Positions 4,939-47,080 of a stretch of DNA of 64,000 nt are shown piece by piece; within the stretch, counting starts at the first letter, position 1; the number at the start of each line of letters is the position of its first letter. Made by a program: the position numbers and the translations under genes. The notes under the pieces are model-generated. The model was not told where the DNA came from and did no database searches. It worked only from the letters and a program-made list of their open reading frames with translations. The DNA comes from Eucommia ulmoides (Eukaryota; Streptophyta; Magnoliopsida; Garryales; Eucommiaceae): positions 29,654,649 to 29,718,648 of the forward strand of contig CM028330.1 in the NCBI GenBank assembly GCA_016647705.1. Reading direction: 5' to 3'.

Positions 4939-4944
4939 TATAAA
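4939..4944 (+). promoter_or_regulatory. TATA box of the PYL1-like gene
   Basis: TATAAA in the context CCTATAAACA, 71 bases upstream of the chosen ATG. Transcription would then start near 4970, giving a short leader of about 45 nt rich in CT (CTCTCT, TTCCCTCTTTCCC), as is common around plant starts. Confidence 0.65.
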
Positions 4945-5015
4945 CAACGAATGCTTTCCATTTCTTGCCTCTCTCTAAATTCCCTCTTTCCCTCTTTAGA
5001 TGCCGGCGGAGTGCG

Positions 5016-5654
5016 ATGGAGAAAGGAGAGACATCAATTGCAGAAGATCCACATCAAACTGATCAAACTATCACGACACACGATTTGATTCTCCCATCCG
5101 GCCTGAGCCAAGAAGAGTTCGACGAGTTGAAGCCGCTCATTACCGAGTTCCACACGTACCGAGTCAACACGGGGCAATGCTCCTCTCTACTCGCGCAGCG
5201 CGTTCACGCGCCGATCGACACCGTCTGGTCCGTTGTCCGCCGCTTCGATAAGCCCCAGACGTACAAGCACTTCATCAAGAGCTGCTCCGTCAAGGACAAC
5301 TTCACGATGAGCGTGGGCGACACGCGTGACGTCAACGTCATCTCTGGTCTGCCGGCGGCCACCAGCACCGAAAGGCTGGAGATGATGGATGATGAACGGC
5401 ACGTAACGGGATTCAGCATCATCGGCGGAGAGCACAGGCTAAGGAATTACCGGTCGGTGACGTCGGTCCACTCTTTCGAACGCAACGGTAAGATCTGGAC
5501 TGTTGTCCTGGAATCATACGTCGTGGATGTGCCGGAGGGGAATACTGAGGAGGACACGCGTCTCTTCGCGGATACGGTTGTGAAACTGAATCTGCAGAAG
5601 CTGGCTTCCGTCACCGAGGTTATGGCCCGTGACGGCGGTGGTGACGGCTACTAA
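5016..5654 (+). CDS. PYL1: Abscisic acid receptor, PYR1/PYL1 type (RCAR, START/Bet v 1 fold)
   Basis: 212-residue intracellular ABA receptor. When it binds abscisic acid it docks on and inhibits clade A PP2C phosphatases, which frees SnRK2 kinases. Visible signatures are the helix and pocket segment YKHFIK (83-88, with the ABA-carboxylate lysine at 84), the gate SGLPA (110-114), STER (117-120), the latch GGEHRLRN (137-144), ESYVVD (166-171) and the C-terminal helix with VVKLNLQKLA (188-197). TRDVNVISGLP and the RRFDKPQTYKHF stretch match the dimeric subfamily (PYR1/PYL1) better than PYL4-6 or PYL7-10. The unconserved first 25 residues and the Gly-rich tail (206-212) are typical. The gene is intronless, as is usual for this family. 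I use ATG 5016; an in-frame TTG at 4965 would only add a non-conserved stretch lying in the leader. The sequence looks intact. The exact paralogue number is an inference from similarity. Confidence 0.95.
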   Translation: MEKGETSIAEDPHQTDQTITTHDLILPSGLSQEEFDELKPLITEFHTYRVNTGQCSSLLAQRVHAPIDTVWSVVRRFDKPQTYKHFIKSCSVKDNFTMSVGDTRDVNVISGLPAATSTERLEMMDDERHVTGFSIIGGEHRLRNYRSVTSVHSFERNGKIWTVVLESYVVDVPEGNTEEDTRLFADTVVKLNLQKLASVTEVMARDGGGDGY

Positions 5655-10029: not shown

Positions 10030-11225
10030 CTTTTCATTTACATGTTTATTTTCTATCCTTTGTCCCATGGACGATAACTTGTTTTCATCTACATGTTTAT
10101 TTTCCATTCTCCGTCCAATGGACGAAGAGTTGCTTACATGTTTATTTTGAGTCTTTCATCCGATGGACGAGGACCTTTTATCTACATGTTTATTTCCTAT
10201 CCTTTGTACCATGGACGGGGACATATTTTTATCTACATATTTATTTTCTGTCATTCGTCCCATGGACGAGGACCTGTTTTCTTCTACATGTTTAGTTTTT
10301 GTTTTTCGTCCCATAGACGAAGAGTTATTTACATGTTTATTTTCTATTTTATGTCCAATGGATGAGGACCTGTTTTCATCAACGTGTTTATTTTTCGTTT
10401 TTCGACCCATGGACAAGGAGTTATTTACATGTTTATTTTTCGTCATTCATCCTATAGACGAGGACCTATTTTCATCTACATATTTATTTTATGTTCGTCG
10501 TCCTATGGACAAGGACATGTTTTCATCTATATGTTTACTTTTTATTCTTTGTCTCATGGACGATGAGTTGTTTACATGTTTATTTCATGTAATTCATTTC
10601 ATGGACGAGGACCTGTTTTCATTTACATGTATATTTTTTGTCCTTCGTCCCATAGACGATGACCTATTTTTATCGACATGTTTACTTTCGTTCTTCATCC
10701 AATGGACAAGTAGTTGTTTACATGTTTATTTTTTGTCCTTTGTCCCATGGACGAGGACATGTTGTCCTCAACATGTTTACTTTCTGTTCTTCATACTATG
10801 GACGAGAAGTTATTTACATGTTTATTTTACGTCCTTCGTCCCATTGACGAAGACTTATTTTCATCTATATGTTTATTTTTTGTTATTTGTCCCATGGACG
10901 AAGACCTATTTTCATCTACATGTTTATTTTTCGTCATTCGTCCCGTAGACGGGAAGTTGTTTACATTTTTATTTTATGTTTTTCATCCCATGGACGAGAA
11001 CTTGTCTTCTACATGTTTATTTTCTGTCTTTTGTCCCATGGACAAGGACCTGCCATCTATATGTTTACTTTCTGTCTTTCGTCCCATGGACAAGGACTTG
11101 CCATCTACATGTTTATTTATGTCCTTCGTCCTATAGATGTTGACCTGTCATTCCACATGTTTATTTTCTATCGTTCATCCTATGAATGAGGACCTATTAA
11201 TTCATTCTACATATTTACTTCTCTA
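10030..11225 (+). repeat. Minisatellite, about 25 units of 45/48/51 bp
   Basis: Units carry ACATGTTTATTTT and GTCCCATGGACGAGGAC. Distances between successive ACATGTTTA words are 51, 45, 48, 51, 51, 45, 51, 45, 51, 51, 45, 51, 51, 44, 51, 45, 51, 51, 45, 48, 48, 48, 48 and 54. All but one are divisible by three. This keeps long frames open on both strands, including a 261-codon stretch at 10163-10948. It is most likely a non-coding element minisatellite. Confidence 0.9.
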
Positions 11226-12201
11226 TCTTTCATCCCATAGACAAAGACTTGTTTGAATTACAACTGACCTAATCTTTGGCACCATGTTGAGGTACATAAG
11301 CAACCATCTGATTGATACAGTCACATTTACTTTCAAGCCAATATTGTTTCAATCTCCACAAGATGATTGTAATTGGCATTTTTCACTTTCCTAAGAAAGT
11401 GATGCGTGCTTTAGTATTTCAAGGTCCATAACCCTTGACAATACCATTTTCATTTCCTTCCTTTAAATGGCCGACCTAGTCTGATCAAGTTTAGGTTCTT
11501 TATTTTTAATCATTCTAGCGAAGCAAAATGGTGTGTGTCTCCTATCTTTGTCACCACGAGTAAACTCTCATGACAAAAATGGGAACATGTAGATACAGTA
11601 TTTTGTCTCACCCATTTTTGCATTTCATAGAAGTACCGGGTCTAAAATGAAAAGTTCGACAAACTTTAAAGTGGGTTTAAAAAGACAAATTTACGCTAGA
11701 TTCTTATGTTTAATTGTTGTATAATGTTTTAATTCAGAAAAATACAAAAAAAATCGACAATTTGATTGAATTCGATAGGAAATAAAGTTTCAGGCTAAAA
11801 GTAAAATTTATAAACGTTAATTGGGGACCAAATTAAAATTGAATTTTCATAGAATATCACTTTTGGTATAGTTAATTTCGATTTTCAACCTTTAATATTA
11901 AGAAATTTCACCACTTCCAACTACTTTTAATTTTCGAAATGGAACATTCCAATAACAAATTGGATAGTATAATTTCATTTTAAGCATTTCAATTCCACAA
12001 AAAATTACATTTAATTGATAAAAAACTGTTCAAGGCACTAATTTCACCTTATGCACACCTCTCGGAAATAAGACGTAGCATTGGAATTCCAAATTGGACT
12101 GCCAATAGCCATCTTTGGAGTCCCCCAAGTCATTCCCTTTAATGGTAAGACATAAGGAAGTTGAAAATTAAAGGCAACTACTTAATCTTTGAAAAAGAGA
12201 A

Positions 12202-24000: not shown

Positions 24001-26394
24001 ATGTTGACGAAGGGGGTTTAGAACACGTACCTGGGAGACGAGAGAATCTCACCTCCGAATCAAGTCAGATGTGATAGATTTAATTTATTTTTAACCTTGG
24101 GGTACCTCCCAAGAAGCCCGTGGTTTAATGTTCTCGGCTCGATATTTTCAGAACACCCTCAAGCTTGGTGAAATTTTATTTTGTTCGGCTTGATCTTTCA
24201 AAGACACATATTACTGGATTATGTGCGTGGCCACGCACCATAAAACGGCTTGGAATCCCGTTGAAAGTAATGCATCAATACCCGTTGATCTAACATCTCC
24301 AGGTAACCTGCATAAGAAACAAAAACAAAATTACAAACAAAAATTATATACAAAAGAAATGCCTAAAGTAAAATCGGGTTATTTACTTACAATATCGATA
24401 ATAACTCTATCCAATCCCTAGAAATGTCATCAAAAACTTGGTGATGATTTTCGAAAACGGAATTTGACAACAACCAATCCCTGACAATGGCGCCAAAAAC
24501 TTGTACGGCAAACGTTTGTTACGCGCTCGCGTATTGACTACTCGCAAATGTACGAGGTCAAAGTTTTAGTATAATGTGATCTTTAAGATAGGGTATCATA
24601 TCCACAGGGATTGGTGGTCATTATTATCGAGTACCGTGCTTATTATGACCTAACTTTATCTAGTATAAATAGAATGTATAAAATTTATATTAAACTAAAC
24701 CAATTAACTTAATTTAATCTATACTAAATATACTAATATGAGATAGTTACGGGATGGATTATCTAGGAATTAACTTTATTTACTTAAACGCGTTTGATTT
24801 CGGTTAGTTTATAATAATGGTGTTTGACCTATTCGACAATCTCAGCTCGTAAACTCCCCCGCCACCTCTTCCAAGTGTAAGACGAGGGATGTAACACGAC
24901 TTCGTGTCAGCGAAGAAGTCCCCCTCGATGTCTTAACGACCCTAGGTTACGTAAGTCTCACCCCAACGTCATTGATTGCACACAATCCAACTCTCGACCG
25001 GGTTATTGGATCGTCGCGTTATGTTTACCTTATCGACAATCTCAGTTTTAAAACTCTACCGCCACTTCTCCTGAGTGTAAGATAGGGGAATACATAACTT
25101 CGAGTCAACGAAGAAGTCCCCCTCAATATCTTAACGACCCTAGGTCATGTGAGTCTTGCCCCAACGTCATCGATTGCCCACAATCCAACTCCCTCACGGG
25201 TTATTGAATCGTGGTGTTTGTTTACCCTAGTCCGAATTCGGGGTTTGTCAAACCCCGTATTCTCCGAATATCATTCTAAGCATGATAAACAAACAATACG
25301 GCACACAATCAAAATAGCGAAGAACAATTACTAAAGAAACACAACTCAAACAAAACTACGTTTTTATAAATAATAATAATCCCATACATAATCCACATTT
25401 AGCCTATGGACATAGCCGTTTTATACAATTGAAACAAAACTAAACATGCTCAAACAAATATCGAAGTTAAGAAATAAAATAAAAAATGGATGAACTTAGC
25501 TGATATCCAAAGATTAGCCGCTAAAACCGTCCACCAATCGATTTTTCTTCTCCGTGTGGTAATCTTCTCCTTAGGATTTGTTTGAGCACTCCCTATACTC
25601 TCTCTCTACTATAAACTAAGCCCTAAGGACTCTAATGGCCGGAGGAGAGAAGAGAAGGGGGTATAAATTGGAAAAATATCCTAATAAATATCTAAATCTG
25701 TGCAAAGGTGACCGCTTCGGCGGTGGGTATTTCGGTTTGATTTTCACCACAGCGGTAGAGGAGGCGGTGGATTCAGGGACTTCTCCACAGTTTCACCACC
25801 TAGGCGGTGAGCTTCCAGCAGATTTAGGTTCCTCTCTATAGTTTCACCGCCTAGGCGGTGGGCTGCTGTTCTGAATATTGCCCTTATGCTTATTTTTTCA
25901 CCTTTTTTCTACCATTCTTAATCTGATATCATTGTTTAGCATTCTTTTTCATACCGTTTCACCCCACACACATGATTTAATACTAAAAGAATAAAAACAC
26001 ATTAAATTGTATTAAAACGTAATAAACGTACTAAAAAAAGGAAAAATTTCAGTTTTGAAATATATAGGGAATTTACACCTATCACATGTCAAAATCTTTC
26101 TTTATTTATTTTAATTTTATCCTTGTTTTGATTTTTATCAAAACCCGGTGACCTAGCATACCCTATTAAAACCCATGCTAGGTGGCAACTCCGAAATTTC
26201 ACAAAATTCAGCCCAAGTAAAAAATTGTTCGAAATCGATGCTTAGAAACCCCCTTGAACTTGTTTTTAAAATATTTAAAAAATAAATCTTATCCAAATCA
26301 TTTCAAATAAAAGGATAAATTTGTTTTCCAAATCAATGGGATTCGAATAACACCATCATTAGGTGTCGTTTCTCGCGAAATTCGGAGTGTGTCA
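21085..26394 (+). mobile_element. Tat/Ogre-like LTR, copy X2, split by element B, fossil
   Basis: Opens TGTAGACACTACATTTGTCC and ends GGAGTGTGTCA. The two outer parts (21085-21922 and 26085-26394) match the beginning and end of LTR X1. The middle of the LTR, including the TATA region, is absent where element B sits. No primer site or polypurine tract is seen at its edges, so it looks like a solo or truncated LTR. Confidence 0.7.
21923..26084 (-). mobile_element. Element B: non-autonomous LTR element (same group as A), incomplete
   Basis: Minus-strand relative of A: 5' LTR 24502-26084, PBS (reverse complement of 24475-24495, TGGCGCCATTGTCAGGG), non-coding interior 22621-24474, PPT 22609-22620 and a partial 3' LTR 21923-22608. 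Its U3 palindromes are of the CCGCCTAGGCGG and CCGCNGCGG kinds (25705-25860 and 22195-22400). No gag or pol is seen. A second PBS-like module lies at about 24420-24440. Loss of LTR X2 sequence and of its own 3' LTR at the same junction suggests one deletion event. Confidence 0.85.
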
Positions 26395-27974: not shown

Positions 27975-28256
27975 TGACATGTAAGACCCCGACTTAGCAA
28001 GTACGTCATTTATAATTGCATTCTAGAGCATGGGAAAATTCGGGGAGAAATTGGATTAATTAAAATTCAAACCAAACATTTAGGGGTCAATTTGCAAATG
28101 TAGAAAACATTCAAGCCAAAATCGGCATTTGACTTTCGAATTAAAACTTTTTGGGTGGAATCACAATTTAAGAAACTCATAAGTGATAAATTGAAATAAA
28201 AATGAGAATGATAGGAATTAGGGGGGAGGAAAGAGAAATTAACCAAAAGTTTTGTT

Positions 28257-28281
28257 TATATATATATATATATATATATCT
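28257..28281. repeat. (TA)n microsatellite in solo LTR 1
   Basis: About 25 bases of alternating TA. It may double as the LTR's TATA region. Confidence 0.85.
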
Positions 28282-28489
28282 GAGTATAACTGTGACGATC
28301 AGCTAGCCGGCAGGAAGTGTGGCGACCTGGATTGAAGAGGAAGCATGATCGATCCACTAGATCCATGCATATAAATTGCACACATGCATGTAGTGATAGG
28401 AAAATCGGAAAGAATCGTCCAAAAACAGGAAAACCGAAGAGAGAGAAAGGAAGTTACTGGCGGTGAGTTGTGCTTATTGTCCGTCCGTC

Positions 28490-29060
28490 CGTCTGATGAC
28501 CAGGTGGGAGTGTATGTGTGTGTGCACCGCTGTGTGTGGGTATGTGTGTGTATTAGTTGTGGGTATGTGAATGGTGGTGTATATGTGGTGATCAGTGTGT
28601 GTTTATGTGTGTATGGTGGTTGCCGTCGTCGCCGGAATGGAGGGTAGAGAGAGAAAGAGAGAGATTGGGTTGGAGGAGTGGTCGATAGCTATGGTTTGGG
28701 GAATGCCGTTCACTGTTATCATTGATGGGTTGTGGGTGTGTGTTCCGTTCGGTTTAAGTAGGCGATCGTGTGTGTGGCATGTCGGCGCTGCTCGGTTGAG
28801 TTGAAGCAGAAGCAGAAACAGAGAAAGAAGAGAGAGGTGGGTCACCGGTAGTGAGGGCTGGTGGAGGTGTCGGCCGTTGAACCAGGAACACAGATGAAAA
28901 AATAGAAGAAGAAAAAGGAAAAAGAAGAGAAAATAGTGGTCGTCACCAGTGGTGCAGGCCGGCGGAAGAGAGAGAGGGGTTCAGTGAAGCGGGCGTAGAC
29001 CAGAAAACGAAGAAGAAACAGGAAGAAAAGAAGAAAAAGAAAGAAAAAGGAAAAAAAAAA
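28490..29060 (+). repeat. GT-rich then GA-rich strand-asymmetric blocks in solo LTR 1
   Basis: 28500-28620 is dominated by GTGTGT words. 28640-28680 and 28800-29060 are strongly purine-rich (GAAGAAGAAAAAGG-like). The matching positions of solo LTR 2 (44340-44860 and 45060-45175) have the same order. The apparent frames on either strand are composition artefacts. Confidence 0.7.
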
Positions 29061-29937
29061 TTGGGAAAATTCCACAAACCACCCCAACAAAAATTAAAAA
29101 TCCAATTTTGCGACCGACGGAAAAGTCAAAAGAGGTAAAATTCCTATCACTTTTAATATATGCATTTAATTGTGTTTAAATTATCTCGTGAGTGATTGTA
29201 AAACTAATCTCTAGCACCAAAATGTCGAAATGACGATAATAAATATTGAGACCATTCGCATAAATGAATTTGATATCGTAAACGGTAACGGAACCATACT
29301 CGTTAAATAGTAATACAGAATGCGGGGAATAGGAAATTACAAAAATTAGGTCCTGTATTTAATGGTTAGGTTATCTTTACATAAAATATTAATTTAGGCC
29401 TTGTCACGAATAGGTTCCCGATTTCCAGAGGATCAGTAGCAGAGAGTCGGTGGAACTTTCAGAAACGGATATTCAGGTGAGTATACTGTCTTCTTGCCAA
29501 ACTATTTTTCTATGTATATATATGATGAAATATGTGTTAACTTAAACTGTACGAATTTATAAATGATATGGATCAAGCATGATTTGGGTAAGTTGGTAAA
29601 CTGGATTTTCGGAAGATTTCGATAGTCTTCGAAAAGAAGTTGAAAATGAATTTTTGTTGGATTTGGTGAAATCAGACGGTGTTTTTAAAAGAGAATAGAA
29701 AACATCTATTTTTCTAAAAAAAAATGCCTAGTTTTCTAAAAATAAAAGGTGAAAAAGTGGTTTTGATAAAATCAGACGTTTTCTTTAAAAGAAAGTGTGA
29801 AATATGATTTTTGGATTTAAAAGTTGGTTTTGAGGAAGAGAGATAGACGTGGTGATTTGAAAATATTGAGTAGACGATATTTATTAAGTTGTGATTCGAT
29901 GATACTATATTTGATTTGACGATGCCATAGTATTTAT

Positions 29938-30020
29938 CCGCTTCGGCGGAGTGATGTTTATCTGCCTCGGCAGAGTGATGTTAGATGATTATACCGCGTA
30001 GTGATTATCCAATTCGGCAG
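29938..30020 (+). repeat. Tandem TTCG/CTCG tetraloop hairpins in solo LTR 1
   Basis: CCGCTTCGGCGG (29938-29949), CTGCCTCGGCAG (29962-29973) and a weaker CCAATTCGGCAG (30009-30020), each followed by AGTGATG. Unit length is about 24. Stem of four pairs, loop TTCG or CTCG. Confidence 0.8.
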
Positions 30021-30677
30021 AGTGATGGGTGTTCGTAGGAAGGCACATCCTACGGATGGTACGGTACCGTTGCAAACTCCCGATTATGAGGTTAAAACGA
30101 TCACTAGGGCTGGCCAGCGTGTGTGTGTTTGAGATGAGATGTTTTACTTATATTTGGTGATTTATTATTTATTATGGTGATTGGTATTATTTTACTAGAT
30201 GGGTTGGAATGAACTTATATTTATTGGTTTATTTTCACTGCTTATATTATGGAGAATTTTACTAGTTACGTGCTGTTTCTATACTCACGCTTGATCCATT
30301 TAGATGTTGTAGAATGAATTATTATTTTAAAAATATTTTTACTATGAAGGCAGTACACTCGCAGGTAAAATAGCTAGGAGTCGGTCGATCCCCTACTGGC
30401 GCTAGATAGAGTTATGCGGGTCACGCAAGGGAGTCATTTGAGAAAAATTTTGGAGACGAGATATCAAAAATAAAATCTAAGTAAGGTTCAGGGGATTTGT
30501 TTGATTGTATTTATATTCGGGATGGTGTATCCCTATAAGATGGGACTATTATATGTGTTGTATAGATTTACAATTTTGTTATTGATGTATTGAGGTTGGT
30601 TAGTCAGTTGGGCGGTGTCATGTCTATGTCACGCCGGCCCTACATGATGGGTGTCCGGTGTGGGGTGTGACATGACA

Positions 30678-37214: not shown

Positions 37215-38900
37215 AAATGATGAATATAGGCGGGCCCCTAAGGGTTCTAGAGAGAGAAACTTTGACATTTCCAAGCCAATGCCTTCCTCGTCGTTATGAG
37301 AGTCCCGATCCATTGCTGTTGGGTTTGGTTGGACCAATTCTTCAGTTGTATTTAGCTGTTGATCATTTTCTGTTATAGATTTGAAGACTCTCCAGTGGTG
37401 ATTTGGGCTTTCTCTGCCATTGGTTCAACTGCAGCAATTTCTTCTTAGAAAGGCTAGGAAGTAGAGCTTCTATGACGTAGGGCATTTTTCAGTTGAGGGC
37501 TTCGTCAAGGCTTATATATTAGAGTTTGAGCATTTGGATCTAGTTTATATCGATCTCGATGTCAAGTTGGTTGATTATATCTCGTTTTTCCTAAATCAAT
37601 TATAGATTTCTCGTTGGGTCAGTGTTTGGTTCGCTGGTTATTTCAAAATTTATCAGGTCGTCGATTAGGGGGGTGTTTTATTGGGTTTGTGGGTGTAAAA
37701 TAGGGTCAGTTTATTCCCAGAGATAGTTTGGTCATGGTTCAGCCAGGCCAACTGCCAGTAGATTCCTTGCCTCATGCTTCTGGGCCATTTCTATCTTTTG
37801 CACAAAAATATTTCTCATATATCCTCGCTTCAGAAGTGAATCCAATTATCGAATTAAAACCTTCTGCCACTCATAAGGGTGAACGAGCAGTTTCTTCTTT
37901 GATCAAGAAATTCAAGGTTTGGCTAAACCATTTCGATGCACTTTGGTGGGTATGTTTTCTCATAGAAAACTGCCCTTTTTAGATTTGGATTTTTTTTTAT
38001 TTTTATTTTTTTCGAAATTAGGTCTAAATAGGGGTTTTAAGATTAGTTTTCTTGATAGAAAAACATGTGCTTATATGGTTAACTAAAAATGAGATTTTTC
38101 AAAGGATTTGGTTAAAAGGAATTTGGTTTGTTCATGCTTATCCAATGCATATTTTCAAATGTTCTTTTGTATTTCCATCTCATTTAGAATCAATTGTTGC
38201 TCCAGTATGGATTTCGTTACCTAAGCATTCCATTCATTTCTATAATGCTCAAACTATCTTTTTCTATTATTCAATCATTTGCTAGTCCGTTGAGATTGGA
38301 TTCTACAATTGTGGAGTTATCAAGCCAATATTTAGCTTGCGTGTGGGATAAAATTTATCTGCTTAAGCCTAGGCCAAATAGAGTTTGGATCGGTAAAGGG
38401 GATGATAATTGTGATTTTTTGGCAACCATTTTGTTTTGAAAATATTCCTCTGTATTACAACCATTTCCTTCATCAAGGTCATGATAAGAGTTCATGTAAG
38501 ACAACATCTCCATAAAATGAATTGAAGCAAGTAATCAACGAGAAACGCCACAAAGATAGGGAGAGTAATCAAGTTCTGGTACAAGGAGAAGATAAAAATA
38601 TTGCAGACGCAGGCTTTGAAAAATCTAGTAATTTCACTCGGTCGCAAGAAATTTAGGAGGCAAAGGAAGTAGTTGGGGAAGGTTAAACGGTAACGAATAT
38701 CATCAAGTGTAGTTGATGCAAGAATTGGGCAACAAACGATTCTTTCCACTAATCAAAATTTTCTGTTTAGGGAAGATAGTAGAGGAAAAGACAATTCTTC
38801 TAGCACTCAAGAGTCAGATCTTAACAAAGAATATGTTTTTAATAAAATGATTATTAGAGATGAGGAAGTTCTTTCTGATGGTATGGGTTTGGAGGCTTAT
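37215..38900 (+). mobile_element. LINE ORF1-type relic (DUF4283 domain), left part
   Basis: Plus-strand remains of a plant L1-type ORF1 protein, an RNA-binding protein with a DUF4283 domain. The first part of the frame is ATG 37734 to 37982 (SGPFLSFAQKYF, HKGERAV). After a frame change it goes on at 38052-38439 with HVLIWLTKNEIFQRIWLKG, PMHIFKCSFVF, APVWISLPK, LRLDS and LKPRPNRVWIGKG, the classic DUF4283 order. A CCHC-like PLYYNH stretch follows. The untranslated front (37215-37730) is fairly GC-rich. No LINE reverse transcriptase is found, so this is an ORF1-only, non-autonomous or internally deleted copy. Element D splits it at 38900. Confidence 0.75.
38896..38900 (+). repeat. Target-site duplication CTTAT (left) of element D
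   Basis: CTTAT precedes TGATAGGTG at 38901 and recurs at 47076-47080 after the D 3' LTR. Confidence 0.8.
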
Positions 38901-40476
38901 TGATAGGTGTGATCTACCTACATATTTCCAAACCGGTTTTGTTAGTTTTAGAGTATTTTTATAGTTATTTTTATTATGTTTTAATTAGTTTTTGTACTTT
39001 TTGTATAAATCAGGTGTGTGAGGCAAAAATATAGGAAACTGGAGTGAAAACGATGAGATTAGACCAACAACGATCGAAGAACGGTGGAAAAACGAGTAAG
39101 GCAGCAATATTCTGAAAGAAGCCTACCACCATGGTGTCTAAACCTCTGCCGCGGCGGTGAAAATGCAGAGAATGACCTATTCTTGCTAGACACTTACTGC
39201 TTAGGTGGTGAAACTGTAGAATGTCAACCAAATCCACCATTGTCTTCACCGCCGCGATGATCAACCAATCGACCTACTCACTGCCTAAGCGGTGACCTCT
39301 GCATAATTTAGATATTTTGTTTAGATATTTTTCCTATAAATACCCTCTCCTCTCCCTTCCTCTTGGGTGTTTTGGCCGCTAGAGCCCCTTGGGCTGTAGT
39401 TAGGGTTGGATTTAGGAGTGTTAGAGGAAGAGCTCACATCCCGAAGTGGAGGAAGACGACGAAGCAATCGTTGAATAGTTCTTAGCGACAAATCTTTGGA
39501 CGAGGCTAAGTTCTTCAATTTCTTCCCGTATTTCTTTAACTTAGGATATTGTGAGTATCTTTAGCTCATTCTTTATTTGTAAATGCAGTTATGGTTGTAG
39601 TTTAACATGAATTGTATAGGGATTAACGGTATATTTATAAATATGTGATTCGGATGATTTCGGTGTTGCATTATATTTGTTCTTCAGAGTTTGATTGTCT
39701 ATATCGTATTGTTATGTTTATTATGCTTAGAATGATATTCAGAGAATCCGGGGTTTGACAAACCCCGGATTCGGACTAATGTAAACATAACGCCAATCGA
39801 TGATGTTGGGGCGAGACTTATGTGACCTAGGGTTGTTAAGATGTTGAGGGGGACTTCTTTATTGACTCGAAGTCATGTATTCCCCCGTCTTACAGTCGGG
39901 AGAGGTGGCGGTGGATTTTTAGAATTGAGATTGTCGTTAGGGTAAATACAACGCGACGATCTAATGACCCGGTCAGGAGTTGGATTGTGTGTAATCAATG
40001 ACGTTAGGGGCGAGACTCACATGACCTAGGGTCATTAAGACGTTGAGGGGGACTTATTTGTTGACACAAATTCGCGTTATATCCCTTATCTTACACTCAA
40101 GAGAGGTAGCGGGGGAGTTTACGAACTGAGATTGTCAAATAGGTCGAAGACCATAAACGTAAGTCAATCGAGATCGAACACGTATTTGTAAACCGAATTA
40201 ATCCCTAGACAATTATTTCCTCTAAAACATCTCATTAGATTAGTATAGTTAATTTAGGTTATATTAGTATTAGTATTAATTAAATTAAATACATTTGTTT
40301 TTAGCCTAGATAAAGTTAGGTAATGATAAACACAATACTCGATAGTAACGAACACCAATCCTTGTGGATACGATACCTGATCTTAAACGATCACACTATA
40401 CTAAAACTTTGACCTCGTACACTTCCGAGTAGTCAATACGCGAGCGCATAACAAACACTCCACCGTACCAAGTTTT

Positions 40477-40565: not shown

Positions 40566-42349
40566 TCATTGTCGATATTGTGAGTAAATGACCTGATTTT
40601 ACTTTAGGCATTTATTTTGTATATAATCTTTGTTTTGTAGTTTTGTTTTTGTTTCTTATGTAGGGTACTTGGCGATGTTAGATTGACGGGTATTGATGCA
40701 TCAATTTCGACGAGATTCCAATCCGTTTTATGGTGTGTGGTCATGCACATAAGCTGGTGAGGCGTGTCGTTGAAAGATCGGGCCATCCAGTGCAATATCT
40801 TGCCAAGCTTGAGGGCGTTCTGAATATGTTGGGTGGAGGACATTAAACCACGCGCTTTTTGGGAGGCAACCCAAGGTCAAATAAATTAAATCCATCTCCG
40901 TCGAATTTAAACGGAGGCAAGATCCTCTCGCCTCCCAGGTACGTGTTCAAAACCTCCTTCGTCAGCATGCTTAAATTTCATATGTTGAGAATGATGATTT
41001 GGTTCACTGAGGACACTATTATTTTTGAGTTCATAAGTGATGTATAGTATGTTAGTTATGTGTTATTATTTTCTCGTATTGCATGTTTGTTTAGGTTAGT
41101 TTGTGTTTGCTTGTTGTTGTTGTTGCATGTTGAGTTTTGGGTTCATCTGGGCTGTTACCCAATGATGACATTACCCCTGGTTGTTTTCGAGGTCAAGGGT
41201 AATACCCATGCATGTGTGATTTTGTGTGCTTGACATTGCGTTTTGGTAAAAATTATTGAAGATCCTAATTTGCACGAGCACATAGACTCAATGTATTTCT
41301 ATTCAATTGATTTGAGGACGATTATCGATTGGCTAAACTCATAACAAATTAAGGATTCTAGAACTTGATTGAGGGAAAACTTGAGGCGAAATCCAAGGCA
41401 AGGTAGTTTAGGAGACATGATTTAGGCATTCGTTTTGTCGCTTTAGCCTTTTTACCCTACCATGTAACATGTTTGCCCTGTCGAAGTCTTAATGCCAATT
41501 CAATTCTGAACACATAAACAAATACCCTAGCCAGTTGATCTTTTTCCAAACCTTAATCATTGAATTTAAAGGCACATTTGAGTGAATTAAGTTAGCATTT
41601 ATATATGCTACTTGATGTAAGCGGTTGGGTTTAGGGAGAACTTCGGATTGGTTTGGTATTCGATTACTCACTGGTCGTTTTTCTTTCGTTTTAACCACAC
41701 CTGTGAAATCATAATAATCGAAAAAGTTTGGGGGTGTGATTATTTAGAAAAAAAATCATTTTTTTTACAAGTGAGTATTACGTTCTTATATTGTTTATTC
41801 AAAATTGTTTCCCAATTTATCTGTGGGATTTTGAGAGTGAATGTGCCAAGCGTTTAGCCTTGGGTAACGTCAAGTTAACAACGTTAACCCATTTTCTTTT
41901 CCAAAATACCCTTGGCCAGATATACCAAAACCGAACCAAGTCATTTTGATCTCTATGAGCTTCCAATCCTACATTAGTGGAGAGTGGACCCTAATCCGGC
42001 ATATGGTAATCCTTGTCCTATACGGTCTAAGTCATGAATTTCGTTGGGGGATAATCTAATCCAGTCGTTGTATAGTTATATTATTGAGTCTCACACTAAC
42101 ACATTTATAGGATCTAGAATGGCGTTCACCATTATTGCATGTCGAAATTCTAGAACCACATGATGTGTTTTACCTCCTGAACTCAATATAACTGGCGGTT
42201 GTTGAGGGAAAAATAAATAGGTTGTTAGAAGAAGTCAAAACTCGCATGTCGTTATGTTTAGATTGTTTTTAGGATGTTTGTTATTTTATTTCGTTGTGTT
42301 TTTTCATTTTTGTGTGTGTGTTTTGCTCGAGGACTAGCAAAATTCCAAG
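40566..42349 (+). other. Non-coding interior of element D
   Basis: About 1.8 kb with the same conserved blocks as A: CGGAGGCAAGATCCTCTCG near 40912, TTCATCTGGGC near 41141, and TACATTAGTGGAGAG near 41970. No gag or pol is seen. Confidence 0.7.
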
Positions 42350-43846
42350 TTTGGGGGTATTTGATAGGTGTGATCTACCTACATATTTTCGAATCGGTTT
42401 TGTTAGTTTTAGAGTATTTTTATAGTTATTTTTATTATGTTTTAATTAGTTTTTATACTTTTTGTATAAATCAGGTGTGTGGGGACAGAAAGATAGGAAA
42501 CTAGAGCAAAAACGATGAGATCGAACTAAGAACGGTCGAAGAACGGTGAAAAAACGAGCAAGGTGGCAATATTCTGAAAGAAGCTTACCGCCGCAGCGGT
42601 AAAAATACAAAGAATAACCTATTCTTGCTGGACACTCACCGCCTAGGTAGTGAAACTGTAGAATGTCAACAAAATCCACCGATGTGTTCACCGCCGCGGC
42701 GATCAACCAACCGACCTACTCACCGCCTAGGCGGTGACCTCTGCACAGTTTAGATATTTTGTTTAGATATTTTTCCTATAAAATACCCTATGCTCTCCCT
42801 TCCTCTTGGATGTTTTGGCCACTAGACCCCCTTGGGCTATACTTAGGGTTGGATTTAGGAGTGTTAGAGGAAGAGCTCACATCCCGAATTGGAGGAAGAC
42901 GACAGAGCAATTGTTGAATGGTTCTTAGATACAAATCTTCGGACGAGGCTAAGTTATTTGATTTCTTCATTTATTTCTTTAACTTAGGATATTGTGAGCA
43001 TGCTTAGCTCGTTATTTATTTGTAAATGCGGTTATGGCCGTAGTTAAACATGGATTGTATATGGATTAACGCTATATTTATAAATATGTGATTAAGATGA
43101 TTTTGGTGTTGCGTTTATATTTGTTCTTCGTACTTTGATTGTGTTTATCATATTGTTATGTTTATTATGCTTAGAATGATATTCGGAGAATCTAGGGTTT
43201 GACAAACCCCGGATTCGGACTAATGTAATCATAATGCCAATCGATGACGTTGGGGCGAGACTTACGTGACCTAGGATCATTATGACGTTGAGAGGGACTT
43301 CTTCATTAACTCAAAGTCATGTATTCCCCCGTCTTACATTTGAGAGAGATGGCTGTGGAGTTTTAGAACTGAGATTGTCGATAGAGTAAACACAACGCGA
43401 CGATCCAAGGACTCGGTCGGGAGTTGGATTGTGTGCAATCAATGACGTTGGGGAGAGACTCACGTGACCTAGGGTCGTTAAGATGTTGAAGGGGACTTCT
43501 TCTTTGACACGAAATCACGTTATGTAAGACCCCGACCTTGGGCATACGTATAAATTAAGTCGCGTTTAAAATTACCTCGAAAATAATGGGGTTGATGGTG
43601 TTAATTATGAATTTGAGGGCTTAATTCGTAAATGTTTTCAAACATGAAGGGGATAAATTGCAATCTTCATAAATATTAAAATTTAGAATGAGTTTAAATT
43701 ACGATCCTAGCTAAAATAGCGGGGCGGATTTTGACATTTAAGTTGTGATTTAAAAGTTTAGGGGGTCAAAGTATAAATCTTCAAAAATATTAAAAATAAA
43801 AACATGAAACTTAACAAAAATGAGGGGGGCTTGGTGTAATTATTGA

Positions 43847-44012
43847 TATATATATATATGTATATATATACATATATGTATATGTATATATATATGTATA
43901 TGTATACATATATATGTATACATATACATATACATATATATGTATACATATACATATACATATATATGTATACATATACATATATATATACATATACATA
44001 TATATATATATA
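43847..44012. repeat. Compound TA/TG/CA microsatellite
   Basis: About 165 bases of TATATATG, TATACATA and similar words. It is nearly self-complementary, hence open frames on both strands that are not genes. Confidence 0.95.
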
Positions 44013-44073
44013 GCTTAAGTCGGTGGAAGTGGAGAAGGGAGAAATGGGACGCGTGGCCTGCCATCAGATCATA

Positions 44074-44112
<39 letters not shown>
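44074..44112. repeat. (CA)n microsatellite
   Basis: Nearly pure CA of about 39 bases inside solo LTR 2. Confidence 0.95.
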
Positions 44113-44113
<1 letters not shown>

Positions 44114-45912
44114 AGAGAATGAAGAAGAATGGAGAAGGATTGAGAAGAGAAGAGAAGAGGAAGAGAGAGAGAGGAGAACCGGAGAAGAGAGAGAGAAGGC
44201 AGTCGGCATCGTTATGGTCTCACCGGCGGTGGTTTGTGAGTCACCATTGATCGGCTAACAGGAAACCGAAATAGAAAAGAAAGAGAGAGAGAGAGAGAAT
44301 CGACAGTGGCATTCACTGGTAAGGGATCGATAGTCGGAAATCATGTGGGTTTGTGTGTGTATGAGTATTTTGTGTGTGTGTTCAACTGTGATCAATGTGT
44401 GTATGTGACTTGGGGTGTGTGTGTGTGTGTTCGGTTTGCTTGACGGTTGTTCAGTAATTCGGTGGTGTGGGTTTTGATCACCGGCGGTGGGTTAGAGAGA
44501 GAAAACTTGTCGGTGGCGTGTGATTGTCCTGTTCCGTCGCCGGTGGTGTTGTTGTGATTAGTGTGTGTGGGGGTGTTCGTTCAGTTGATTTCATGGGTGT
44601 CGGATTGAACGCGTATGTGTGTGTGTGGCTCGGTTGTGTGGGTGCCGTTTGCCGGTGGGCTATGTGGGTTGCTATTATGGGTGTATGTGTGATTGTAGTG
44701 CGTATGTGTGTGATTTGATGTGTGCTGTGGGTGCATGTGCTGTCCAATTGTGTGTGTGTGGGTAATCATTGTGGGTGTGGCATCGCCATCATCTGGCGAG
44801 TGTGGGCGTACGGTTCAGCGTCATTGGTGTGGGTGCGTGTGTGTTTTTGCTTCTCCAGTGGTGGGCTGAAACGAAACCGAAATAGAAATGGCCGTGGGGG
44901 TGTGTGACTGGAGGTAGCGTTGCTGGCATTGGGAGTTTTAGTGAGAGAGAGCGACAACCGACGTGTGTATTAGTCTGACTTTGTTGTGCGTGTGTGGGTG
45001 TAATCGGCCGGCGATCATGTGCGTCCGTGGGTGAATTGTGATGGGTCGGCTGAATCTATAGCGGAAACAGAAGAGAGAGAGCTGGTGGGGCGGCGAGAAT
45101 TGATTGGCAGCAGAGAACCCAACAAACAGAACCAAAGGAGAAAAAGAAAAGAAAAGGAAGGAAAAGGAAAAAGGGAAATTTGTATAAACCACGCCACTAA
45201 ACTTAATGATCCAATCTCGCAGCCGACCGAAAAATTTGGAAAAAAGGTAGAATTTCAAACTTCTATAATATATGTATTTAAATGCCTAAATTGAAAATAA
45301 CGATAGGAAATAGATCGATATAGTAATTTCATAATAAAGCGTGGGGAATAGGGAATTACGAAATTTAGGATCTACAATTCGTGATTTAGATATGTTTACG
45401 TAAAATATTAATTTAGGCCCTATCCCTATTAGGTTCGTAGGTACTGGAGTACCAGTAGATGATAATTGGCAAGAGTTTATGGAAACGGATATTCAGGTGA
45501 GTGTACTGTCTTCTTGCAAATCTATTTTTATATATGTGATGAAAAATGTGTTTACTTAAAACTGTACGATTTTATAAATGATATGGATCAAGCAGGTTTT
45601 GGGTGAGTTGGTAAATTGGATTTTCGTTGAATTATGTTGGTTTTAAAAAGAAAGATTAAAAATGATTTGTTGGATTTGGTAGTTTTAAAAGAGAGTGGAA
45701 CAATGCCTAGTTTTCTAATAACAAAGGTGGAAAAATGGTTTTTACTGAAATCAGTAGGTATTTTAGATGAAAGTGAAAAACATGGTTTTTGAATTAAATT
45801 GGTTTTGGAAATGAAGGTTGAGATTTGTGATTTGACGATGTGGATTGATGATATTGATTAGACGATTGTTATAGATTTGTGGTTTAATGATGATGTTATG
45901 GATTATATTTCT

Positions 45913-46000
45913 CCCCGTAAGGGGTGTGGATTATATTCTCCCTGTAAGGGGTGTGGATTTCTTCCCGTAAGGGATGTGGATATTTCTCCCCATAATGAGG
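45913..46000 (+). repeat. Tandem GTAA tetraloop hairpins in solo LTR 2
   Basis: CCCCGTAAGGGG (45913-45924), CCCTGTAAGGGG (45940-45951), TCCCGTAAGGGA (45963-45974) and a weaker CCCCATAATGAGG (about 45988-46000). Units are about 25 bases, separated by TGTGGAT. Stem of four pairs, GNRA-type loop. Confidence 0.85.
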
Positions 46001-47080
46001 TGTGGATTATACTATGCAGTTTGTTCCGCTAGGAAGGCATATCCTAACGGATGGTACGGTACCATTGCAACTCTCGATCGTGAGGTTAAAACGATTACTA
46101 TGGCTAGCCAGTGTGTGTTATGGTGGAGTGGTGTTTTGAGATGTGGTGTTTTATTTATATTGGGTGATTTATTATTTATTATGGTGATTGGTATTATTTT
46201 ATACTAGATGAGTTTGAATGGAACTTATACTTATTGGTTTATTTTCAATGCTTATGTTATGGAGAATTTTACTAGCTACGTGCTGTTTATATACTTACGC
46301 TTGATCCATTTCGATGTTGTAGATATGAATTATTATTATAAAATGTTTTTACTAAGAAGACACACTTGCAGGTGGAGCAAATAAGAGTCGGTTGGTCCCC
46401 TACTAGCACTAGTTAGAGTTATGCGGGTCAGGCGTTGGAGTCATACGAGAGTAATTTGAGATGAGCTATCAGAGGATGAACCTAAGGGAGGTTCATGAGT
46501 TCTATTTATTGTTTCTATTTTGGGACAGATGTAACCCTATAGTATGAAGTTATCATATATATATATGATGTGTAGATGAAAGTTTGTATATTGTCGTATT
46601 TAAATTTGGTTAGTCAGGTGATGTCATGTTGATGTCACACCGGCCCCACGGTGACGGGTACCCGGGGTGGGGTGTGACACGTTATATCCCTCATCTTACA
46701 CTCAGGAGAGGTGGCGGGGGAGTTTACGAACCGAGATTATCAAATATGTCAAATACTGTAAACATAAGTCAATCGAGATTAGACACGTATTTGTAAACCG
46801 AGTTAATCCCTAGACAATTATTTCCCCTAAAATATCGCATCATATTAATATAGTTAATTTAGGTTATATTAGTATTAGTATTAATTAAATTAAATACATT
46901 TGTTTTTAGCCTAGATAAATTTAGGTCATGATAAACACGGTACTCGATAGTAACGAACACCAATCCCTGTGGATACGATACCCGATCTTAAATGATCACA
47001 CTATAGTAAAACTTTGATGTCGTACACTTGCAAGTAGTCAATACATGAGCGCATAACAAACGCTCCGCCGTACCACTTAT

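What the first reader, a model, noticed from the sequence alone, without database searches (positions are those of the whole stretch)
29938..30020. Tandem tetraloop hairpins at one place in an LTR, TTCG type
Solo LTR 1 carries CCGCTTCGGCGG, CTGCCTCGGCAG and a weaker third copy in about 24-base units. A 4-bp stem closing a UUCG loop is among the most stable RNA hairpins. The homologous place in solo LTR 2 (45913-46000) also has tandem 4-bp-stem hairpins, but with quite different sequence. Keeping structure while changing sequence suggests selection on RNA structure, for example in packaging, dimerisation or transcript end formation.
Basis: partly seen in the sequence, partly recalled or inferred. 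Interest (0 to 1): 0.72.

Follow-up and report, generated by a model that had tools for sequence, protein, structure and literature searches.

The report
Swappable RNA hairpins in plant retrotransposon
A jumping element in a tree genome carries, at one fixed place in its long terminal repeat, rows of small hairpins whose letters differ between lineages while the hairpin shape is mostly kept, inside what looks like an intron; this suggests a swappable RNA signal, though its job has not been shown.

Summary
Both solo LTRs are exact (TG..CA, 5-bp target duplications) and belong to a Ty3/gypsy family with 2117 exact anchor hits in its genome. I examined 162 copies. The array just upstream of GGATGGTACGGTACC comes in at least five sequence types: UNCG-loop hairpins (A), GNRA-loop hairpins (B) and longer hairpins (C, D, E). 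In A, 75 of 80 copies keep two or more pairable units; in B, 28 of 32. Joint complementary transitions fall on true stem pairs 1.48 times as often as expected, against 0.96 at mispaired positions. Type C shows none of this. Array types switch repeatedly on the tree of the neighbouring LTR sequence (31 changes, minimum 6), like exchangeable cassettes. The array lies in a probable 0.9-kb intron of the LTR leader ([CG]AG|GTGAGT exactly in 65 of 81 copies). I read it as a structure-selected RNA signal on unspliced RNA, packaging or export being likeliest (inferred). Against: ordinary folding energy; CpG decay can explain the change within LTR 1; another hairpin-bearing tandem array lies elsewhere in the window. 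No RNA data.

The parts
27980..30672 (+). Solo LTR 1, 2693 bp, TGTAAGACCCCGAC...GGGGTGTGACA
   Evidence: termini and 5-bp TSD TGACA at 27975-27979 and 30673-30677
43523..46679 (+). Solo LTR 2, 3157 bp, same family
   Evidence: TSD CGTTA at 43518-43522 and 46680-46684; lies inside the 3' LTR of another element, whose uninterrupted sister copy (38887-40470) shows the empty site
29477..30364 (+). Probable intron in LTR 1 (ATTCAG|GTGAGT ... CTCGCAG|GT), enclosing the array
   Evidence: sequence; donor-like region in 81 of 82 copies, exactly [CG]AG|GTGAGT in 65 of those 81; T 0.37 against 0.24-0.32 in flanks (which set the donor one base late). Splicing itself not shown
45497..46371 (+). Probable intron in LTR 2 (ATTCAG|GTGAGT ... 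CTTGCAG|GT)
29937..29950 (+). Hairpin unit 1, TCCGC-TTCG-GCGGA (UNCG)
29961..29974 (+). Hairpin unit 2, TCTGC-CTCG-GCAGA
30009..30020 (+). Fourth unit of LTR 1, stem broken here (commonest form of that slot: CCGC-TTCG-GCGG, 25 of 71)
45913..45924 (+). LTR 2 unit CCCC-GTAA-GGGG (GNRA)
45940..45951 (+). LTR 2 unit CCCT-GTAA-GGGG (one G-U pair)
45963..45974 (+). LTR 2 unit TCCC-GTAA-GGGA (compensatory outer pair)
45988..46000 (+). LTR 2 unit CCCC-ATAAT-GAGG, broken here
30033..30055 (+). Conserved last hairpin TCG-TAGGA-AGGCACA-TCCTA-CGG
   Evidence: all 8 pairs pairable in 136 of 162 copies (best of several parses per copy); its lower stem and bulge vary with array type
46026..46050 (+). Conserved last hairpin of LTR 2, CCG-C-TAGGA-AGGCATA-TCCTA-A-CGG
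30054..30068 (+). Anchor block GGATGGTACGGTACC
   Evidence: 2117 exact copies in the genome, 0 of the reversed control
46049..46063 (+). Anchor block of LTR 2

Best explanation
The array is a tandem set of RNA hairpins in the LTR of a Ty3/gypsy family. It is kept mainly for its shape: the hairpin letters turn over by tandem duplication and paired changes, and whole arrays are exchanged between element lineages as cassettes. It sits in a probable intron of the LTR leader, so it would be present only on unspliced, genome-length RNA. The likeliest job is a cis-acting RNA signal that marks unspliced RNA for replication: packaging by Gag first, nuclear export or splicing control second. Shown here: hairpins in most sampled copies of A and B, several unlike hairpin types at one place, complementary changes in excess on true pairs (clear in A and E, small samples in D, weak in B, absent in C), repeated exchange relative to the downstream flank, and splice-site motifs kept around it in most sampled copies. 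Inferred: transcription, splicing, function in RNA, and packaging.
For: Hairpins in most sampled copies of types A and B. Strong hairpins per 156 nt against shuffles: A 2.29 v 0.55, B 2.31 v 0.82, D 2.33 v 0.47, E 1.53 v 0.53. Joint complementary transitions: true pairs 81 observed v 54.9 expected, mispaired positions 78 v 81.6 (P 0.007 taken as independent events). Eight units chosen from D, E and the last hairpin vary by WC-preserving double changes at 7 of 8 pairs. Loops vary mostly at the free position: genome-wide CCCC-NNNN-GGGG-TGTGGATT 3993 exact, 3055 of them GNAA, all four N seen in the first 100 listed; type A has TTCG 239 and TACG 15 of 376. G-T pairs exceed A-C on the sense strand in B 48:20 (closing pair left out) and E 91:47. 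Array type needs 31 changes on the downstream tree (minimum 6; starred branches force 4-7 each for A, B, C, E), and one clade of 19 copies (support 94/82, not starred) holds A, B, C and E. Donor G 78, T 80, then GAGT 80-81 of 81; acceptor AG|GT in 71 of 82 best matches; two divergent relatives carry a different acceptor ending TTTCAG|GT.
Against: Type C (19 copies): fewer strong hairpins than shuffles (0.47 v 0.89) and no covariation (true 3 v 4.71). Mean array fold z is only -0.88 on the sense strand, against -0.59 and -0.38 in control windows, and -1.08 on the antisense strand, so the energy does not point to sense RNA. Covariation leans on single pairs: 18 of 18 joint changes in B, 20 of 31 in A, 9 of 21 in E; it may be a few old events inherited many times, and in B arm permutation is not significant (1385 of 20000). 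Type A's slots E and C show more broken pairs than G-U, 51 v 31; C and D units have more A-C than G-T, 66:41 and 8:4. Some recurrent loops are neither UNCG nor GNRA (ATCA, GTAT, ATAAT). The upstream-flank tree forces few exchanges (A 4, B 1, E 1, C 2). Sequence stays near-invariant beyond the donor, not only in it. No spliced genomic copy was found, though none is expected. No RNA data. Another tandem array in the window (10031-11217) also bears a hairpin in its unit.
Confidence: 0.5

Rival explanations
1. Neutral minisatellite: a short palindromic unit expands and contracts by slippage or template switching during reverse transcription. Quasi-palindrome correction and CpG decay produce paired changes; there is no selection on structure.
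For: The array is the most diverged stretch between donor and acceptor, about 30-47% identity per column against 82-92% in the best flanks (the 5' half of the LTR is as diverged). The LTR 1 compensatory change is two CpG transitions. Type C shows no covariation. Fold energy is ordinary. Another hairpin-bearing tandem array exists in the window.
Against: Summed over types, paired changes exceed expectation only at true pairs. Several hairpin architectures recur at one place. Loop changes keep GNRA/UNCG form more often than not. Array types are exchanged as if equivalent.
Confidence: 0.27
2. Nuclear export or splicing-control element: the hairpins keep part of the transcript unspliced or carry intron-bearing RNA out of the nucleus, like the transport elements of IAP and MusD.
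For: Position inside the probable intron. Such elements in mouse LTR elements are described in PMC12786077 (passages read).
Against: No direct test. Cannot be told from packaging by sequence.
Confidence: 0.15
3. DNA-level repeats: tandem palindromic protein-binding sites (enhancer repeats in U3, as in tobacco Tnt1; recalled), or DNA hairpins acting as recombination sites.
For: Short tandem dyads in an LTR. Array types exchange relative to the flank just beyond the anchor block.
Against: Hairpin parts of different types share no detectable sequence except C with E (1 of 10 comparisons), which fits a sequence-specific DNA-binding protein poorly. GNRA/UNCG loop form appears on the sense strand. 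Splice-like signals on both sides suggest the place is transcribed.
Confidence: 0.08

Closest known systems
Retroviral packaging signals (psi) lying downstream of the major splice donor
   Same: Several stem-loops downstream of a donor-like site, so only on unspliced RNA; works-like comparison only
   Different: Here the hairpins are tandem copies, interchangeable between unlike types, and lie inside the LTR itself; Gag binding unknown. Psi features recalled; only a listing with titles and starts of abstracts seen
BARE1/BARE2 Ty1/copia elements of barley (PMC3735527)
   Same: Plant LTR element with separate RNA pools for translation and packaging and with splicing; avoidance of packaging spliced RNA is discussed there (passages read)
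   Different: Copia; 104 nt spliced out near the end of gag; no hairpin array in the passages seen
Ogre and EVADE intron-containing plant LTR elements (PMC12786077, PMC6317226)
   Same: Introns in plant LTR-element RNA; named as notable exceptions to intronless elements (passages read)
   Different: Their introns, in the passages seen, lie in or between coding regions; here the probable intron lies inside the LTR leader
Tandem repeats in plant Ty3/gypsy non-coding regions (non-chromovirus elements, PMC6317226)
   Same: Arrays of tandem repeats in expanded non-coding regions of gypsy elements with large LTRs (passage read)
   Different: No hairpin-forming, interchangeable units in the passages I saw

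Membership tests
Ty3/gypsy LTR retrotransposon | TG...CA ends and 5-bp target duplication | tested here: met
   both LTRs of the window
Ty3/gypsy LTR retrotransposon | Initiator-tRNA-type primer binding site after the LTR | tested here: met
   TGGTATCAGA after one LTR end in L090 and TGGTATCAGAGCC in L177; no LTR end was found by the pattern in L089, L091, L092; tRNA assignment recalled
Ty3/gypsy LTR retrotransposon | Pol domains of gypsy type in relatives with two LTRs | tested here: met
   RT_RNaseH (L090) and SH3_Tf2-1 (L091) by Pfam, 2 of 5 ORF fragments matched; the other three gave no Pfam hit, and L089 had no pol-like frame of 120 aa or more
Ty3/gypsy LTR retrotransposon | Lineage (Tekay/Del chromovirus) by RT tree or chromodomain | not tested
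   no RT tree made
GNRA / UNCG RNA tetraloops | Loop letters GNRA or UNCG | tested here: met
   B 134 of 187 units GNRA, A 255 of 376 UNCG; CpG-decay forms make up 28 of 53 others in B and 75 of 121 in A
GNRA / UNCG RNA tetraloops | Present in RNA and folded | not testable with these tools
   no transcript or probing data
Spliceosomal intron | Donor and acceptor consensus kept across copies | tested here: met
   GT at the donor in 77 of 81 and 66 of 72 found regions, AG|GT at the acceptor in 71 of 82; regions were picked by likeness to references that contain the sites, so biased upward
Spliceosomal intron | Spliced RNA exists | not testable with these tools
   two genome patterns for spliced copies gave none
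Retroviral-type packaging signal | Binds Gag; removal lowers encapsidation | not testable with these tools
   bench only
Retroviral-type packaging signal | Stem-loops conserved by covariation | tested here: inconclusive
   excess in A and E, small samples in D and E0, weak in B, none in C
Rfam family | Match at gathering score | tested here: not met
   0 matches in the window

The most novel reading that the evidence does not exclude
A plant Ty3/gypsy family carries an intron inside its LTR leader that holds an interchangeable hairpin cassette acting as the packaging mark of unspliced genomic RNA. Lineages swap unlike cassettes (UNCG, GNRA, bulged long hairpins) by recombination at the neighbouring invariant block without loss of function, because Gag reads the shape or number of hairpins and not the letters.
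Probability: 0.22. Interest if true: 0.8.

Novelty: new variant of a known kind. Interest (0 to 1): 0.55.

Why it matters
How plant LTR retrotransposon RNA is chosen for packaging rather than translation seems little known (PMC3735527 says so for elements other than BARE, passage). A place in a family with thousands of copies where RNA shape is apparently kept while sequence is replaced and exchanged would give a natural experiment with many variants, testable with ordinary RNA-seq, probing and binding assays. If instead the arrays are neutral, this is a clean caution on how CpG decay and tandem repeats imitate covariation.

Tried and rejected
Long-range stem ATGGATCAAGC / GCTTGATCCAT enclosing the array (29568-29582 with 30285-30299): found in both LTRs, but no covariation in 46 distinct arm pairs from 81 of 82 copies (382 of 506 WC cells v 377.1 permuted; 275 of 2000 permutations as high). 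Dropped.

Strand-polarised wobble test on type A slots E and C was against selection (31 G-U v 51 broken). On all template-matched A units it is 167:85 for G-T, but one template (CTGT/GTAG) has built-in wobbles, so I do not lean on it.

Spliced-copy search: 6 hits of the first pattern; the four that I could read (L175-L178) are another place near the LTR end, and the two others match the same letters. The 2 hits of the second pattern are divergent LTRs with another acceptor. No spliced copy.

First tables for C and E slots had wrong offsets and were replaced. Slot 'B' was mis-framed and is not used. One search read wrong file names; repeated.

Viral and bacterial contig scans for the last hairpin gave 0. 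Literature (listings only unless said): no listed title or abstract start named hairpin arrays in plant LTRs in searches, nor an intron inside a plant LTR in searches. LORE1, a plant chromovirus (PMC2832683, passages): 'splic' does not occur. The held library misses most subscription journals.

Never answered: whole-genome loop and pair counts (CCGCNNNNGCGGAGTGATG, CTNCCCGTAAGGGNTGTGGAT, TATCCNCTTCGGNGGAGTGATG).

Full report
What is there. The two LTRs are real solo LTRs of one family. LTR 1 is 27980-30672 with target duplication TGACA; LTR 2 is 43523-46679 with CGTTA. LTR 2 sits in the 3' LTR of another retroelement, whose uninterrupted sister copy shows the empty site. They are about 72% identical over the best-aligned 1.4 kb. 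Within that part identity is highest around a donor-like site (29449-29590) and between the array and an acceptor-like site (30124-30336); between donor and acceptor it is lowest at the array. The 5' half of the LTR is as diverged as the array.

Hairpins in the window. LTR 1 has two intact units with UNCG-like loops (TTCG, CTCG) and two degraded slots. LTR 2 has three pairable units with GNRA loops (one closed by a G-U pair) and one broken. The whole stretch does not fold better than shuffles (windows). Within LTR 1 the one compensatory difference (CCGC/GCGG to CTGC/GCAG) is two CpG transitions: P 0.027 with flat rates, 0.10-0.14 with CpG weighting. Within LTR 2 the one compensatory difference has P 0.007-0.015. 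From two copies alone the case would be weak.

Family. The genome tool gave the window's genome: 946.7 Mb in 391 contigs, 2117 exact anchor blocks, 0 reversed controls. The host is very probably that tree (inference). Relatives with two anchor blocks carry RNase H (L090) and an SH3 domain of gypsy type (L091), and the LTR is followed by TGGTATCAGA in L090 and L177.

Sample. The anchor search listed 100 places, all on contig 1; I fetched 80 of them. A second search for another form of the last hairpin (CGYTAGG) had 100 hits in all; I fetched 80, six more were already in hand, 14 were not fetched. With LTR 1 and 2 that makes 162 copies (82 + 80). Sampling needs an exact anchor block, and the second half was chosen to enrich rare types: the classifier gives A 80, B 32, C 19, E 19, D 3, F 2, unclassified 7 overall, but A 74 of 82 in the first set and 6 of 80 in the second. 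Type B units alone have 3993 exact hits with CCCC/GGGG stems, so many B arrays must lie beside changed anchor blocks and were not sampled.

Array types. A: 4-bp stems with TTCG or TACG. B: slots TCCC-GAAA-GGGA, CCCC-G(T/C)AA-GGGG, CCCC-GTAA-GGGG, TCCY-GTAA-GGGA and CCCC-ATAAT-GGGG (commonest forms). C: CCTGCCG-10 nt-CGGCAGG. D: CTCG-T-TAGGT-7 nt-ACCTA-CGAG. E: CCTG-T-CCGGA-6 nt-TCCGG-CAGG, plus CCT-CCGGA-GACG-TCCGG-T-AGG. D, E and the conserved last hairpin share a lower stem, a bulge (5' side, or 3' side in the last E unit) and a 5-bp upper stem. Eight chosen units are fully paired and differ by double changes at 7 of 8 pairs (chosen because paired, so illustrative). Spacers resemble each other in 11 of 28 comparisons (at most 7 of 300 shuffles as high; two of the 11 are within B or C, and A with B does not, 212 of 300), hairpin parts in 1 of 10.

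Tests for structure. Strong hairpins exceed shuffles in A, B, D and E, not in C (0.47 v 0.89) and hardly in the unclassified (0.71 v 0.55); in A and D the upstream control window also has many (1.25 and 1.33 per 156 nt). Arm permutation on distinct units gives double-changed WC cells: E 27 v 14.8 (5 of 20000 as high), A 32 v 21.3 (16), D 4 v 0.9 (546), E0 9 v 5.1 (627; includes false matches), B 18 v 13.8 (1385), C 4 v 5.9 (17764), C1 0 v 1.0 (20000). Relatedness and uneven decay can inflate these. The better control asks whether complementary transitions co-occur at true pairs more than at mispaired positions of the same letters: 81 v 54.9 expected at true pairs, 78 v 81.6 at mispaired; by type (true ratio, mispaired ratio) E 1.56, 0.94; A 1.51, 0.29; B 1.36, 1.09; D 4.5, 0 (2 events); E0 2.4, 1.29; C 0.64, 0.81. 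P is 0.007 if counts were independent, which they are not. G-T against A-C on the sense strand: B 48:20, E 91:47, A 167:85, but C 41:66, D 4:8, and A slots E and C 31:51. Mean fold z of the array is -0.88 sense and -1.08 antisense, controls -0.59 and -0.38.

Loops. Genome-wide, CCCC-NNNN-GGGG-TGTGGATT has 3993 exact hits and the GNAA subset 3055. Among the 100 listed, by my count 68 are GNAA, 24 ANAA (CpG decay) and 8 others. So the second loop position varies and the A-A end is mostly kept. The matching count for type A did not complete.

Cassette exchange. On a tree of 185 nt downstream of the anchor (162 rows; bootstrap not settled), array type needs 31 changes (minimum 6, shuffled mean 75.3); starred branches force at least 5 (A), 4 (B), 5 (C), 7 (E); D is one clade. 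LTR 1 (A) and LTR 2 (B) fall in one clade of 19 (support 94/82, not starred) that also holds C and E. A quick tree from 155 nt at the donor (137 of 162 rows) needs 23 changes but forces few. So arrays and downstream LTR have been reshuffled. Recombination at or near the anchor block is the simplest cause (inference). Errors of the rough classifier would add changes.

Setting. A donor-like region lies upstream of the array in 81 of 82 first-set copies and 72 of 80 second-set copies; it reads exactly [CG]AG|GTGAGT in 65 of 81 and 37 of 72, and has GT in 77 and 66. The exon side varies except for AG; the intron side stays near-invariant even beyond +6, so conservation is not purely donor-like. 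TTTTTACTAAG-like sequence and an AG|GT acceptor (71 of 82 best matches) follow 275-437 nt after the anchor start; two divergent relatives have TTTCAG|GT instead. The interval is T-rich, 0.37-0.39 against 0.24-0.32 in the flanks tabulated. ATG is depleted before the donor in LTR 2 (33 v 64.7 shuffled) and less in LTR 1 (24 v 31.4), not after the acceptor. Review text says plant LTR elements generally lack introns, with Ogre and EVADE among notable exceptions (PMC12786077, passages).

Mechanism. Best reading: an RNA hairpin array on unspliced RNA, kept for shape and number, exchanged between lineages; packaging mark likeliest, export or splicing control next. BARE gives a precedent for separate RNA pools in plants (PMC3735527, passages including one from the abstract). 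The neutral minisatellite reading remains a serious rival, because type C fails, fold energies are ordinary, and another hairpin-bearing tandem array is in the window (10031-11217).

Verdict. Observation confirmed and extended. The structure-kept claim is moderately supported; the job is unproven.

Noticed in passing
10031-11254: Tandem array of about 24 units of 51 bp whose unit contains CGTCC-CAT-GGACG, another hairpin-bearing array in the same window; relation to the LTR array not tested. A base-rate warning for the finding.
   Followed up: no
25711-25860: G+C-rich palindromes ACCGCTTCGGCGGT and CACCGCCTAGGCGGTG near each other in another sequence.
   Followed up: no
38887-40470 and 42349-43522 + 46680-47075: LTR pair of another retroelement; solo LTR 2 is inserted in its 3' copy.
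   Followed up: partly
28257-28279 and 43846-44012: (TA)n-rich tract about 0.3 kb inside both LTRs, before GA- and GT-rich stretches; possible promoter side, not tested.
   Followed up: no
4944-5654: Open frame that looks like a PYR/PYL abscisic-acid receptor (recalled from its protein sequence, not searched).
   Followed up: no
L175-L180 (contigs C90, C149): Divergent LTR relatives on two contigs, some of them about 6.4 kb apart; L177 keeps an LTR end plus TGGTATCAGAGCC; arrays of L175 and L177 look like type C.
   Followed up: partly
L070, L096 and other type E copies: The last E hairpin often carries a GACG tetraloop (17 of 48 template-matched units), the loop recalled from gammaretroviral packaging hairpins; L124 has TTCG there instead.
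   Followed up: no
29568-29582 with 30285-30299; 45580-45593 with 46299-46312: Long-range 14-15-nt inverted repeat (93% complementary) enclosing the array in both LTRs; no covariation.
   Followed up: yes
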